A stretch of 64,000 bases of DNA from Candidatus Poribacteria bacterium (GTDB taxonomy: Bacteria > Poribacteria > WGA-4E > WGA-3G), in the NCBI GenBank assembly GCA_958295815.1, contig OY282374.1, forward strand, positions 2,066,856 through 2,130,855, read 5' to 3'. The notes under the pieces are model-generated. The model saw only the letters and a program-made list of their open reading frames with translations. It was not told where the DNA came from and did not search any database. The first letter of the stretch is position 1; every line of letters starts with the position of its first letter. The translations under genes were made by a program, and so were the position numbers. This document shows, one piece after another, positions 36,278-40,690 of this stretch.

Positions 36278-36520
36278 TTACATCAAAGCGTCTTCGACGG
36301 GTTCAGGGAGTTCAACTGTACTTGGATCTACATCAATAGGATATTCTGTGCCGTATGCTTCGACGAGTTCATCAAAAGTGACGTTGTCTACCCGATCAAG
36401 GTCATCACCGGGATAGACAAGCCATACGCCATAACAGCCGTCACAACTCACCAAGTCTACGTCATCCTTCTCAATCGGGAACTGTGTCAGAGGATTATTA
36501 CAATCGGGACAAGGCAGCAT
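36278..36520 (-). CDS. small zinc-ribbon protein
   Basis: An 80-residue protein starting MLPCPDCNNPLTQFPIEKDD with CPDC (4-7) and VSCDGCYGVWL (about 29-36), a TFIIB-type or rubredoxin-like zinc ribbon, then an acidic tail. It starts 33 bases after the rhodanese-MoeB stop and has GAGGAG before its ATG, so it shares that gene's transcript. A zinc-ribbon partner in sulfur or cofactor transfer is plausible but unproven. Confidence 0.75.
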   Translation of the reverse strand: MLPCPDCNNPLTQFPIEKDDVDLVSCDGCYGVWLVYPGDDLDRVDNVTFDELVEAYGTEYPIDVDPSTVELPEPVEDALM

Positions 36521-36553: not shown

Positions 36554-37741
36554 TTAATCAGCCGCAGGTGCGAAGGTTTCAGGATTCTCCGCTGCGGCAT
36601 CGTAATCATCAATTAGTTTTGTAATAACCGGGTTATCTCCGCAAAGCGGACAATTTTCATCGCGTGTAATTTTCATCTCGCGGTATGTCATGCCTAATGC
36701 GTCGTAAAGAACGAGCCTGCCGATAAGTGGGTCGCCGATGCCGAGGATATATTTAATCGCTTCGGTTGCCATCATAACACCAACTACGCCTGGGAGCACG
36801 CCCAGGACTCCAGCCTCGCTTCAGCTTGGCACCAGGCCCGGGGGCGGTGGTGTTGGATACATGCATCGATAGCAAGGTCCTTCGTGCGTTTTAAAGAGCG
36901 AGACCTGTCCCTCAAATTGGAAAATGCTACCGTGGACGATCGGTTTGTTCAGCAGGACTGCTGCATCATTGACGAGATAGCGGGTGGCGAAGTTATCGCA
37001 CCCATCTACAATCAGATCGTATTCCGAGAAGATTTCTTCAACATTGTCGGCAGTTAGGCGAAGGTTATAGGGTGTAATATCAACGTCTGGATTCAACGAC
37101 TTAATCGTTGCTGTTGCCGACTGCACTTTTGGTGTGCCGACGGCTTCTGTACGGTGGAGTATCTGACGTTGGAGGTTGCTTAACTCTACAACATCAGAAT
37201 CGACAAGACCGAGGTGTCCAATACCTGCGGCACCGAGGTATACACCGGCAGGTGAACCTAAACCACCTGCACCAACGAGTAGAACTTTGGCATCAAGGAG
37301 TTTAGTTTGTCCTTGTTCCCCGACTTCCGTCAGCATAAAGTGCCGACTGTATCGATCGAGTTGATCGTGGGACATCGGTTTGTCTTGTACAGTCGGGTAG
37401 CCGGCAGCCGACCAGTCACGATATCCGCCTGCAAGGGAAACAGTATCGGTATATCCCATTTCGCGGAGCGATTTGGCGGCAAGTAACGAGCGGAGACCCG
37501 CTGCACAGTACACAACGACCTTTTGATCCCGATCCGGGATGTAATTTTCAACGGAAAATTCGAGCATTCCACGTGTGACATGGACGGCATTAGGGATATA
37601 ACCGGCGCGATACTCATCTTCATCGCGAACATCCAGCAGTACGAAATCGCTATCTGTGTCTTGTTCGGCGTTCACTTCGTCAACCGTTACTTCTGGTATT
37701 TCTGTTTTGGCTTCCTCAACGATTTGCCTGTAGGATTTCAT
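36554..37741 (-). CDS. moeB: rhodanese-MoeB/ThiF fusion with in-frame TGA at the conserved cysteine (candidate selenoprotein)
   Basis: If TGA 36823-36821 is read through, this is a 395-residue protein with an N-terminal rhodanese domain (FVLLDVRDEDEYRAGYIPNAVHV; active-site CAAGLRS at about residues 78-84), then an E1-like adenylation domain: VGAGGLGSPAG, VELSNLQRQILH, DGCDNFATRYL and zinc cysteines CYRC and CPLCG. After GLVPS the family reads CAEAGVLGVLPG; here it reads TGA-SEAGVLGVLPG, so TGA is codon 307 at the conserved cysteine. The frame then runs uninterrupted to DALGMTYREMKI and the usual C-terminus. I start at ATG 37741 (AGGAG upstream) instead of 37801. Alternatives are a nonsense mutation or a base error. 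Confidence 0.8.
36789..36806 (-). promoter_or_regulatory. candidate bacterial SECIS hairpin
   Basis: On the minus strand CCTGGG (36806-36801), loop CGTGCT (36800-36795), CCCAGG (36794-36789): a perfect 6-bp GC-rich stem. The loop begins 21 bases after the TGA and has G as its second base, within the spacing and loop rules known for bacterial SECIS elements. Confidence 0.55.
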
Positions 37742-38591: not shown

Positions 38592-39467
38592 ATGTTCAAC
38601 GCAAATCCTTTTCAACAACCCGGACAGTGGTACCGCGGTAATACGCATAGCCACAGCACTGAATCCGACGGGCAACTTTCGATCGGAGATCGGTTCGCTG
38701 CATATCGTGATGCAGGCTACGATTTCCTCGTGCTGACCGACCATCGCAAGGTCAACGATGTACAGGCTCACACAACATCAGATTTTTTAGCAATATCAGG
38801 GAGCGAGGTGCATCCCGATAATCCGTATGGTGGTGATACCTATCACTTCGTTGCTATTAATATACATGAACGCATTAACTGTGCGAAGATGCATCCGAAC
38901 GCAGTGCTTGATGAGATTAAAGCCCAGGGCGGTGAAGCGGTTTTGTGTCATCCCTATTGGAGTGGGCATACAATTTTAGATTATTTGCCTTTACGGAGTT
39001 ATTTCGCTATTGAAGTCTACAACGACAGTTGCGTGGACATCGGCAAAGAGTTTTCAGAACAGGCGTGGGATGATTTGCTAGATAGAGGTGGACCTGTCCT
39101 CGGTATCGCTGCCGATGATTCACACGGTACAGAAAGTGATTGCTTCCACGGATGGATTATGGTTAAGGCAGAGGAACTAACACTTGATAGCATCATGGAA
39201 GCACTTCGGACGGGTGCGTTCTATTCTACGCTTGGACCGGAAATCAAGGATATGACATTGGATGGGAAAGAGTTGACGGTCAAATGTTCGGAGGCACAAT
39301 CGATTGTTTTCAAAGCGCAGTGCAGTCGAGGTAAGCGAGTTTTACCTTCTGATGGTGAACTCTTAACCGAGGCGACCTATAGCATTCCAGAAAGCGTGAA
39401 GTATGTTCGCGTTGAAATAACCGACGCAACTGGCAAGAAAGCTTGGTCAAACCCTTTCTTTTTCTAA
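38592..39467 (+). CDS. PHP-domain phosphoesterase, copy 1
   Basis: A 291-residue PHP-fold metallohydrolase. The metal-binding motifs are visible: GNTHSHSTESDG (residues 16-27), LTDHRKVNDV (about 48-57), SGSEVHP and CHPYW (about 119-123), and AADDSHG near 175. Members cleave phosphate esters such as histidinol phosphate or nucleic-acid ends; no polymerase domain is present. A C-terminal 60-residue beta part (LDGKELTVKCSEAQSI...) follows the fold. ATG 38592 with AAAAAGGAG. About 92% identical to the gene at 39717. Confidence 0.88.
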   Translation: MFNANPFQQPGQWYRGNTHSHSTESDGQLSIGDRFAAYRDAGYDFLVLTDHRKVNDVQAHTTSDFLAISGSEVHPDNPYGGDTYHFVAINIHERINCAKMHPNAVLDEIKAQGGEAVLCHPYWSGHTILDYLPLRSYFAIEVYNDSCVDIGKEFSEQAWDDLLDRGGPVLGIAADDSHGTESDCFHGWIMVKAEELTLDSIMEALRTGAFYSTLGPEIKDMTLDGKELTVKCSEAQSIVFKAQCSRGKRVLPSDGELLTEATYSIPESVKYVRVEITDATGKKAWSNPFFF

Positions 39468-39682: not shown

Positions 39683-40690
39683 ATAACTTAGAAAATCATC
39701 AGAAGAAGGAGCAGCAATGTTTAATTCAAATCCTTTTCAACAACCGGGACAGTGGTACCGCGGTAATACGCATAGCCACAGCACGGAATCCGATGGACAA
39801 CTTTCGGTAGGAGATCGGTTCGCTGCATATCGTGATGCCGGCTACGATTTTCTCGTGCTAACCGACCACCGCAAGGTCAACGATGTACAGGCTCACACAA
39901 CATCAGATTTTTTGGCAATATCAGGGAGCGAGGTGCATCCTGATAATCCGTATGGTGGTGGGACGTATCACATCGTTGCTATTAATATACATGAACGGAT
40001 AAACTGTGCGAAGATGCATCCGAACGCAGTGATTGATGATATTAAAGCTCAGGGCGGTGAAGCGGTTTTGTGTCATCCGTATTGGTGCGGACATACGATT
40101 TTAGATTATCTGCCTTTGCACGGTTATTTCGCTGTTGAAGTTTACAACGACACTTGTATGGGCATCGGCAAAGGGTTTTCAGAACAGGCGTGGGATGATT
40201 TGCTGGATAGAGGCGGACCTGTCCTCGGTATCGCTGCCGATGATGCGCATGGCACGGAACACGATTGCTTCCACGGATGGATCATGGTCAAGGCGGAGGA
40301 ACTGACAATTGATGGTATCATGGGCGCGCTTCGGACGGGTGCGTTCTATTCCACACTTGGACCGGAGATCAAGGATATGACATTAGATGGGAAAGAGTTG
40401 ACGGTCAAATGTTCAGAAGCACAATCGGTTGTTTTTAAAGCACAGTGCAGTCGTGGTCAACGCGTACTTCCATCTGATGGTGAACTCTTGACCGAAGCGT
40501 CCTATAGTATTCCGGAAAGTGTGAAGTATGTTCGCGTTGAAATAACCGACGCAACCGGCAAGAAAGCCTGGTCGAATCCGTTCTATTTCTAACACAGACA
40601 TTTGGGCGTACTCGTCGCCTTTTCGTGGGTGCTCCGATGCATAATATTCTGGTGTGCCAAACGGGGGGTTGGATCGGCGATATGGTGCTT
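39683..40690 (+). repeat. second copy of the ~1 kb tandem duplication
   Basis: Begins aacttagaaaatcatcaga and continues through the second PHP gene into the intact start of the glycosyltransferase gene. Confidence 0.85.
39717..40592 (+). CDS. PHP-domain phosphoesterase, copy 2
   Basis: A 291-residue near-duplicate of the gene at 38592. The metal-binding motifs GNTHSHSTESDG, LTDHRKVNDV, CHPYW and AADDAHG are all kept. Differences by my reading lie outside them and include HGYFAVEVYNDTCMG for RSYFAIEVYNDSCVD. Both copies appear functional, and both have a good ribosome site (AGAAGGAG here). A recent duplication, possibly still under homogenisation. Confidence 0.88.
   Translation: MFNSNPFQQPGQWYRGNTHSHSTESDGQLSVGDRFAAYRDAGYDFLVLTDHRKVNDVQAHTTSDFLAISGSEVHPDNPYGGGTYHIVAINIHERINCAKMHPNAVIDDIKAQGGEAVLCHPYWCGHTILDYLPLHGYFAVEVYNDTCMGIGKGFSEQAWDDLLDRGGPVLGIAADDAHGTEHDCFHGWIMVKAEELTIDGIMGALRTGAFYSTLGPEIKDMTLDGKELTVKCSEAQSVVFKAQCSRGQRVLPSDGELLTEASYSIPESVKYVRVEITDATGKKAWSNPFYF

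What the first reader, a model, noticed from the sequence alone, without database searches (positions are those of the whole stretch)
36554..37741. Candidate selenoprotein: in-frame TGA at the conserved cysteine of a rhodanese-MoeB fusion
After GLVPS the MoeB/ThiF/UBA4 family has CAEAGVLGVLPG. Here the codon at that cysteine is TGA, and the same frame continues SEAGVLGVLPGVVGVMMATEAIKYILG through the usual zinc CPLCG to the normal end, with no frameshift. The cysteine is the one used in sulfur transfer in ThiF/UBA4-type E1 proteins, so selenium there would be chemically meaningful. From memory, a selenocysteine form of MoeB was reported in marine metagenome selenoproteome surveys.
Basis: partly seen in the sequence, partly recalled or inferred. 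Interest (0 to 1): 0.93.

Follow-up and report, generated by a model that had tools for sequence, protein, structure and literature searches.

The report
Selenocysteine E1 enzyme for sulfur transfer
In this bacterial gene, and in all 67 copies read from its order, a UGA stop codon stands exactly where the enzyme family has its catalytic cysteine; the cell is predicted to read it as selenocysteine, and the enzyme would then likely use selenium to load sulfur onto carrier proteins.

Summary
The genome has selA, selB, selD (itself with TGA) and tRNA-Sec(UCA). The TGA is kept in 67 of 67 copies read, from 67 of the order's 72 genomes, down to 62% identity; an E1-only paralogue has Cys in 62 of 62 read. 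A hairpin right after the UGA freezes synonymous codons (rank 1 of 370 windows; 128 of 223 in the Cys paralogue), which fits a bacterial SECIS. dN/dS downstream is 0.07. MoeB was already listed as a predicted selenoprotein (2005, 2008), so this is a new member of a known kind. Not found in my paper searches: the rhodanese fusion, fixed across an order. A pattern scan that excluded this clade found 65 more UGA-MoeB stretches in about ten phyla, 63 with a rhodanese match. In three genomes of one Planctomycetota class both relay cysteines, rhodanese and E1, are UGA. Likely mechanism: a Uba4-like relay through a selenoester on Sec307, then persulfide attack from rhodanese Cys79. Against a strict in-cis relay, some relatives keep the E1 UGA but have lost the rhodanese cysteine (Gly or Asp).

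The parts
36554..37741 (-). Predicted selenoprotein gene: N-terminal rhodanese - C-terminal MoeB/ThiF E1 fusion, 395 aa with TGA read through
   Evidence: NCBIfam NF006444, 540.3 bits, cut-off 449
36821..36823 (-). In-frame TGA, residue 307, at the E1 catalytic (crossover-loop) cysteine position
   Evidence: TGA in 67 of 67 loci; Cys in 19 of 19 aligned homologues; aligns with the Cys of E. coli MoeB TCVEAG
36789..36806 (-). Predicted bacterial SECIS hairpin CCUGGG-cgugcu-CCCAGG, nt +18 to +35 counted from the T of TGA; loop with G at its second base
   Evidence: six pairs formed in 65 of 67 Sec genes and 0 of 62 Cys paralogues; codons +5..+10 are the most synonymously frozen of 370 windows
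37403..37684 (-). Rhodanese domain (residues 20-113)
   Evidence: Pfam PF00581, 3.9e-20
37505..37507 (-). Rhodanese catalytic cysteine Cys79 (YCAAGLRS)
   Evidence: invariant in 20 of 20 aligned rows; motif CA.G.RS found in 65 of 67 loci (of the two misses L089 is a fragment without this domain, the other was not looked at)
36647..37351 (-). ThiF/MoeB adenylation (E1) domain (residues 131-365), with likely Zn ligands PCYRC (290, 293) and CPLC (364, 367)
   Evidence: Pfam PF00899, 1.8e-85; all four Cys invariant in 20 of 20 rows; zinc role from knowledge of the family
36278..36520 (-). Downstream 80-aa TFIIB-type zinc-ribbon protein, possibly same operon
   Evidence: Pfam PF13453; homologue found in the fetched flank in 46 of 67 loci (flanks of unequal length)

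Best explanation
The gene encodes a rhodanese-MoeB fusion whose UGA codon at the E1 catalytic cysteine is predicted to be read as selenocysteine, so that the enzyme would pass sulfur-carrier proteins through a selenoester. Shown by sequence: the TGA at the Cys site, its conservation, purifying selection on both sides, the frozen hairpin after it, and a complete set of Sec-insertion genes. Inferred: SelB with Sec-tRNA decodes the UGA on the hairpin; the ThiF domain adenylates the C-terminal Gly-Gly of a carrier (MoaD, a CysO-like protein or ThiS, for all of which the genome has candidates); Sec307 in the crossover loop takes the acyl group as a selenoester; the persulfide on rhodanese Cys79 attacks it, giving an acyl disulfide and then the thiocarboxylate used for molybdopterin, cysteine or thiamine synthesis. 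This is the Uba4 scheme with Se for S at the E1 residue. Why selenium is kept is not known; a better leaving group in the handover to the rhodanese persulfide, or resistance to irreversible oxidation, are the likeliest reasons.
For: Sec machinery: tRNA-Sec 78.1 bits, anticodon TCA, about 40 nt downstream of the selB match; selA; selD with its own TGA at CAG-U-ASKL. TGA in 67 of 67 loci read from the order, about 62-100% identity, from 67 of its 72 genomes. dN/dS after the TGA 0.066 against 0.021 in the E1 part before it; 0 of 67 have another stop within the next 79 codons. Codons +5..+10 (GTC CTG GGC GTG CTC CCA): normalised synonymous entropy 0.031 against a gene mean of 0.68, rank 1 of 370 windows in 54 family-f1 genes; rank 128 of 223 in 62 Cys paralogues. 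Hairpin complete in 65 of 67, against 0 of 62 in Cys paralogues. Outside the clade, 65 of 65 pattern hits read as MoeB E1s through TGA (Pfam run on 7 of them), and selB was over cut-off in 24 of 25 of those genomes tested. Mechanism by homology: Uba4 Cys202 thioester, rhodanese Cys397 persulfide, acyl disulfide (PMC7527816, passages); mycobacterial MoeZR sulfurates MoaD and CysO (PMC3227635, abstract). Partners: four ThiS/MoaD-fold proteins in the genome; by eye, one overlaps a moaE-like gene, one lies beside cysM-, PAPS-reductase- and JAMM-like genes, one beside a thiO-like gene.
Against: No protein-level evidence. The single-sequence fold of the 54 nt from the UGA is no better than shuffles (z -0.23); against a synonymous-codon null the fold is only modestly better in the order (mean z -1.02) and hardly in the outgroup (-0.29); the case for the hairpin rests on codon freezing and the paralogue control. 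The in-cis relay step is weakened by relatives with E1 UGA whose rhodanese cysteine is lost: Gly in 9 of 31 N-type outgroup loci (titled Latescibacterota or placed on that branch) and Asp in five genomes of the Planctomycetota class searched. 5 of 72 genomes of the order gave no TGA copy in the capped listing, and 8 of 72 no tRNA-Sec of 70 bits or more (all of these are multi-contig drafts). Which carrier is the substrate is a guess. AlphaFold gives low confidence (mean pLDDT 55) for the block 301-310 that holds the site, and no distance to Cys79 was measured.
Confidence: 0.82

Rival explanations
1. The UGA is read as selenocysteine, but the selenium serves oxidative protection or redox sensing rather than a faster acyl relay; the selenoester is not a required intermediate. 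(Shares the Sec step with the best explanation.)
For: E1 UGA is kept where the in-cis rhodanese cysteine is Gly or Asp. In Uba4 the E1 Cys also resolves reactive intermediates under oxidation (PMC7527816, passages). Sec/Cys swap several times in the family (7 changes on the tree, at least 3 forced by starred branches), so Cys can do the same basic job.
Against: The position corresponds to the thioester cysteine of Uba4; in three genomes the second UGA sits at the rhodanese persulfide residue, which points to the transfer chemistry itself.
Confidence: 0.3
2. UGA works as a selenium-sensitive switch: at low selenium the 306-aa truncated product, lacking the rest of the E1 domain, is the regulated output.
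For: Termination is always possible at a Sec UGA; the upstream part holds a complete rhodanese domain.
Against: The downstream codons are under strong purifying selection with no stop in the next 79 codons in 67 of 67; the truncated form lacks the second Cys pair (residues 364, 367). This could coexist with Sec insertion but does not replace it.
Confidence: 0.1
3. Ordinary stop: a broken or split gene, or a sequencing or assembly error.
For: Public gene callers end the protein at the TGA (31 of 240 listed proteins).
Against: Same codon in 67 of 67 loci from 67 genomes, mean dS above 1 in three of four parts of the gene, purifying selection after it, frozen hairpin, Sec genes present.
Confidence: 0.01
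4. UGA reassigned to another amino acid genome-wide (Trp, Gly or Cys).
For: None found.
Against: UGA is the terminator of this same gene in 10 of 67 copies, and a tRNA-Sec(UCA), SelA and SelB exist.
Confidence: 0.01

Closest known systems
Predicted selenoprotein family 'Molybdopterin biosynthesis MoeB' (Sargasso Sea 2005, PMC1088965; GOS 2008, PMC2398784; listed in PMC9312934 and PMC13188914; passages seen only)
   Same: MoeB/ThiF-family E1 with one predicted Sec and a bacterial SECIS; Cys homologues widespread.
   Different: Published entries are metagenome sequences counted in tables; the passages I read give neither the Sec site, nor a rhodanese fusion, nor hosts, and the alignment figure is not held. 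Here the host genome, hairpin and Sec genes are known and the protein is a rhodanese fusion.
NCBIfam NF006444 (PRK08762) rhodanese-MoeB, Cys form
   Same: Same domain order; window protein scores 540.3 against cut-off 449 over residues 5-384.
   Different: The public homologues aligned (19 of 19) have Cys at residue 307; this gene has UGA.
Uba4 / MOCS3 (eukaryotic E1-rhodanese); mycobacterial MoeZR
   Same: E1 plus rhodanese in one chain; carrier thiocarboxylation through the E1 Cys and a rhodanese persulfide in Uba4 (PMC7527816, passages); MoaD and CysO sulfuration by MoeZR (PMC3227635, abstract). Foldseek hits Uba4 6yub with E 6.6e-24.
   Different: Rhodanese is C-terminal in Uba4 (the paper's Cys397 lies after the E1 Cys202), N-terminal here; E1 residue is Cys there, predicted Sec here.
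Rhodanese selenoproteins with UxxG (forms 2 and 4 in PMC13188914 Table 1)
   Same: UGA at a rhodanese residue followed by xxG, as in the double-UGA relatives (U-GGG).
   Different: The window gene keeps Cys in its rhodanese; a rhodanese-E1 protein with two Sec is not among the table passages seen.

Membership tests
Bacterial selenoprotein | In-frame TGA aligned with a conserved Cys of homologues | tested here: met
   67 of 67 TGA; 19 of 19 homologues Cys; 62 of 62 paralogues TGC/TGT
Bacterial selenoprotein | selA, selB, selC, selD in the genome | tested here: met
   all over curated cut-offs
Bacterial selenoprotein | Bacterial SECIS: stem-loop just downstream of UGA with a small apical loop holding a G | tested here: met
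   CCUGGG-cgugcu-CCCAGG at +18..+35; 65 of 67 complete; codons frozen. Criterion from PMC1088965 passages. Thermodynamic support alone is weak; bSECISearch itself was not run
Bacterial selenoprotein | Purifying selection on both sides of the UGA | tested here: met
   dN/dS 0.021 before, 0.066 after, in sampled pairs of 52 genes; dS near saturation
Bacterial selenoprotein | Selenium in a full-length protein | not testable with these tools
   needs 75Se labelling or mass spectrometry
MoeB selenoprotein family | MoeB/ThiF E1 domain with Sec | tested here: met
   PF00899 1.8e-85, TGA inside it
MoeB selenoprotein family | Sec at the same residue as in the published sequences | not testable with these tools
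   figure with the alignment not held; the passages seen give no site
Rhodanese-fused sulfur-carrier E1 (MoeZ/Uba4/NF006444) | Adenylation domain plus rhodanese with catalytic Cys | tested here: met
Rhodanese-fused sulfur-carrier E1 (MoeZ/Uba4/NF006444) | Thiocarboxylates a MoaD/CysO/Urm1-type carrier | not testable with these tools
   carrier candidates present in genome; activity not testable

The most novel reading that the evidence does not exclude
Selenium-based E1 enzymes are a widespread bacterial class rather than a marine oddity: in about ten phyla the acyl-transfer cysteine of MoeB fused to rhodanese has been exchanged with selenocysteine several times over, sulfur carriers travel as selenoesters, and in some Planctomycetota the whole sulfur relay runs on two selenocysteines, persulfide site and E1 site, in one chain.
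Probability: 0.5. Interest if true: 0.82.

Novelty: new member of a known kind. Interest (0 to 1): 0.62.

Why it matters
Most characterised selenoproteins are redox or metal-site enzymes (general knowledge; PMC13188914 passages say much the same of the predicted ones). An E1 whose acyl-acceptor residue is selenocysteine would put selenium into the activation of ubiquitin-like carriers and would form a protein selenoester as a normal intermediate. The Cys paralogue in the same genome and the double-UGA relatives make a ready-made comparison of S and Se at each relay step. In practice, public protein sets carry many of these proteins cut off at the UGA (31 of 240 listed).

Tried and rejected
Single-sequence folding of the SECIS region gave nothing (z -0.23), so codon freezing with the Cys paralogue as control was used instead. 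One fixed hairpin register did not fit all outgroups: register A fits 33 of 65, a second register (chosen after looking, at least 6 of 7 pairs) 22 of 65, neither 10 of 65. A synonymous null forms one or the other in about 40% of draws, and 16 of 62 Cys paralogues also reach the second register, so for single outgroup sequences this is weak. A regex for Sec/Cys sites failed at first and was redone: of 240 listed public proteins 206 Cys, 31 ending at the site, 1 Arg and 2 unmatched, the last three not followed up. A regex for rhodanese motifs in the outgroup failed, was redone and then replaced by alignment. Three other TGA-interrupted frames in the window (minus 9491, plus 26726, plus 44027; at least 100 open codons before and 45 after) gave peptides with no familiar motif by eye; they were not searched against families.

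Literature: of the papers listed for selenoprotein+MoeB (4 of 4), Poribacteria+selenocysteine (2 of 2), adenylyltransferase MoeB / selenoprotein / Sec-containing (20 of 167 listed), selenocysteine+ThiF+E1-like (none) and selenocysteine+rhodanese+MoeB (10 of 10), none names a rhodanese-E1 selenoprotein in its title or the start of its abstract; beyond that I saw passages of PMC1088965, PMC2398784, PMC9312934, PMC13188914 and PMC7527816 and the abstract and outline of PMC3227635. PMC12013277 has none of the five terms asked. The library holds open-licence PMC papers only.

Rows dropped: the tree used 59 of 65 outgroup stretches (short or duplicate ones left out), 16 of 67 order Sec loci, 11 of 62 Cys paralogues and 42 of 240 listed public proteins. 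dN/dS used 500 sampled pairs per part; saturated pairs fell out, leaving 439, 399, 498 and 331. tRNA-Sec and selB were tested in the genomes of 25 of the 65 outgroup stretches. Two outgroup stretches (L176, L181) come from one isolate.

Full report
WHAT IS THERE. The frame lies on the minus strand: 37741 down to 36554, ATG, 306 codons, TGA, 88 codons, TAA. Read through, it has a rhodanese domain (residues 20-113) and a ThiF/MoeB domain (131-365), and passes the cut-off of NCBIfam NF006444, a rhodanese-MoeB family (540.3 against 449 bits). The TGA is residue 307, Cys in 19 of 19 aligned homologues and aligned with the Cys of E. coli MoeB TCVEAG. Cys290, 293, 364 and 367 (zinc ligands by knowledge of the family) and rhodanese Cys79 are present and invariant in that alignment.

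SELENIUM MACHINERY. The genome (5.13 Mb, one contig) has tRNA-Sec at 78.1 bits with anticodon TCA, a selB match over its cut-off ending about 40 nt before it, selA, and selD that itself holds one TGA, at CAG-U-ASKL, which fits the UxxK motif of Sec-SelD in PMC13188914 Table 1. The tool's 14 control genomes ring for weak tRNA-like, EF-Tu-like and SelD-like hits too, so only matches over cut-off are counted.

CONSERVATION. Of the phylum's 84 held genomes, 72 belong to the window's order (families f1-f4); 67 of these 72 gave a copy with one TGA. I read all 67: TGA at the same codon in 67 of 67, identity about 62-100%. The 12 genomes outside the order showed no TGA fusion in that listing, although seven have a tRNA-Sec of 70 bits or more. 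Within the order 64 of 72 have one. A second MoeB, matched over the E1 domain only, exists in the same genomes; I read 62 (60 from the order, 2 from its class): TGT in 35, TGC in 27. In the window's genome it is a 268-aa frame, 1.7 kb from a sulfite/nitrite-reductase-like gene (by eye). The nearest public hits stop at 306 aa, and one is named Candidatus Poribacteria; the phylum name of the window is inferred from that. 31 of the 240 proteins listed end so.

SECIS. After the UGA the codons +5 to +10 are GTC CTG GGC GTG CTC CCA. Codons +6, +7, +8 are identical in 67 of 67, +9 in 66, +5 in 63, +10 in 60. In 54 family-f1 genes this window has normalised synonymous entropy 0.031 against a mean of 0.68 and ranks first of 370; in the Cys paralogue, which encodes nearly the same residues, it ranks 128 of 223. 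The letters form CCUGGG-cgugcu-CCCAGG: six pairs in 65 of 67 (five in the other 2), against 0 of 62 paralogues; the variants at +20/+33 (U-A 60, U-G 7) and +23/+30 (G-C 66, G-U 1) keep pairing, and at +18/+35 two of 67 break it. Thermodynamics alone does not show it (z -0.23; mean -1.02 against synonymous draws). Selection: dN/dS 0.042 (rhodanese), 0.021 (E1 before TGA), 0.066 (after), 0.050 (tail); mean dS is lower just after the TGA (0.84 against 1.3-1.4 elsewhere), in line with the frozen codons.

BEYOND THE CLADE. A degenerate pattern that demands a codon not starting with A after the TGA, and so leaves out this clade, found 65 stretches in named genomes. All 65 read as MoeB E1s across the TGA by their flanking motifs, with Pfam ThiF in the 7 of 65 scanned. 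Record titles name Latescibacterota, Verrucomicrobiota groups, Planctomycetota, Actinomycetota, Chloroflexi, SAR324, Methylomirabilota, Nitrospinota, Tectomicrobia, Gemmatimonadota, Deltaproteobacteria and Proteobacteria; the one Gemmatimonadota (L166) and the one Proteobacteria (L202) record sit inside other groups on the tree, so about ten phyla is the safe count. A rhodanese match was found in 63 of 65: N-terminal in 31, C-terminal in 32; the two misses are cut by contig ends. selB is over cut-off in 24 of 25 such genomes tested, tRNA-Sec at 54 bits or more in 17 of 25 (MAGs of untold completeness). On a tree of 128 E1 domains Sec and Cys change 7 times, at least 3 forced by starred branches; the order's 16 Sec rows form one branch (SH-aLRT 98). 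The tree cannot tell gain from loss.

TWO SELENOCYSTEINES. Two Planctomycetota stretches have a second TGA upstream, at the rhodanese catalytic cysteine: FY-U-GGGSRSLL. A search of the 23 held genomes of that class found both TGAs in three (G088 and G099, the same two genes, and G109 at 63% identity) and five more with E1 TGA but Asp at the rhodanese site (G125-G129). G099 shows a third TGA near the C-terminal end, probably its terminator. After the second TGA the letters TCGCTGCTTGCGGCGCA are the same in 3 of 3. G088 has selB over cut-off but no tRNA-Sec over cut-off; G099 has both; G109 was not tested. Among 31 N-type outgroup loci the rhodanese site is Cys in 20, Gly in 9 (Latescibacterota branch) and TGA in 2; among 31 C-type loci aligned it is Cys in 31. 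So the E1 UGA is the constant here (the scan asked for it) and the rhodanese site varies: Cys, UGA or lost.

HOW IT LIKELY WORKS. In Uba4, after adenylation, Urm1 forms a thioester with Cys202 in the crossover loop; the rhodanese persulfide on Cys397 replaces it by an acyl disulfide, and Urm1-COSH is released (PMC7527816, passages). Mycobacterial MoeZR sulfurates MoaD and CysO (PMC3227635, abstract). The model of the window protein (mean pLDDT 84.7) matches MoeB 1jw9, ThiF 1zud and Uba4 6yub; the block 301-310 around the site has mean pLDDT 55, in keeping with a mobile crossover loop. Carrier candidates in the genome (fold, neighbours and names by eye): MoaD overlapping a MoaE-like gene (ends GGCDV), a CysO-like protein in a run with cysteine-synthase-, PAPS-reductase- and JAMM-like genes (ends GGLF), ThiS beside a ThiO-like gene (ends QGG), and a fourth beside a molybdenum-enzyme-like gene. 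The selenoester step is inferred, and the relatives without a rhodanese cysteine show that the E1 UGA does not depend on an in-cis persulfide everywhere.

NOVELTY. MoeB is a listed predicted selenoprotein: 11 Sargasso sequences, 19 in GOS, one entry in each of two reviews. The passages do not give the Sec site, the fusion or the host. I file the gene as a new member of that kind; the rhodanese fusion kept across an order, the paralogue-controlled SECIS, the breadth and the double-UGA form are additions that my searches did not show in print.

Noticed in passing
L222 (= L160 gene), L223 (= L192 gene), L224: Rhodanese-MoeB genes of one Planctomycetota class with two in-frame TGAs, at the rhodanese and the E1 catalytic cysteine.
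   Followed up: partly
L225-L229; L153, L159, L162, L166, L182, L203, L211, L215, L216: E1-UGA fusions whose rhodanese catalytic Cys is Asp (five class-mates of the double-UGA genomes) or Gly (Latescibacterota branch).
   Followed up: partly
L155, L167, L173, L196, L198, L199, L204, L209, L212, L214: Verrucomicrobial clade (mostly titled Roseibacillus) with neither hairpin register; instead CTT CCC GGC GTG ATC GGG further down is identical in 10 of 10. The three genomes tested (G085, G093, G103) had no tRNA-Sec over the Rfam cut-off, while selB is over cut-off but its best stretch covers only about the first 350-360 of 581 positions: possibly a divergent tRNA-Sec/SelB pair.
   Followed up: partly
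36278-36520 (-): TFIIB-type zinc-ribbon gene downstream of the Sec-MoeB gene, found in the fetched flank of 46 of 67 loci; function unknown.
   Followed up: partly
L218:1489-1743, L219:1492-1926: MoaD and CysO-like carriers end GGCDV and GGLF, past the Gly-Gly; the second lies in a run with a JAMM-like gene, so C-terminal trimming may be needed.
   Followed up: no
38592-39467 and 39717-40592 (+): Two nearly identical 291-aa ORFs in tandem, probably a recent duplication; no Pfam match for the first, the second not scanned.
   Followed up: no
L050 (minus strand): SelD of this genome is itself a predicted selenoprotein (TGA at CAG-U-ASKL).
   Followed up: partly
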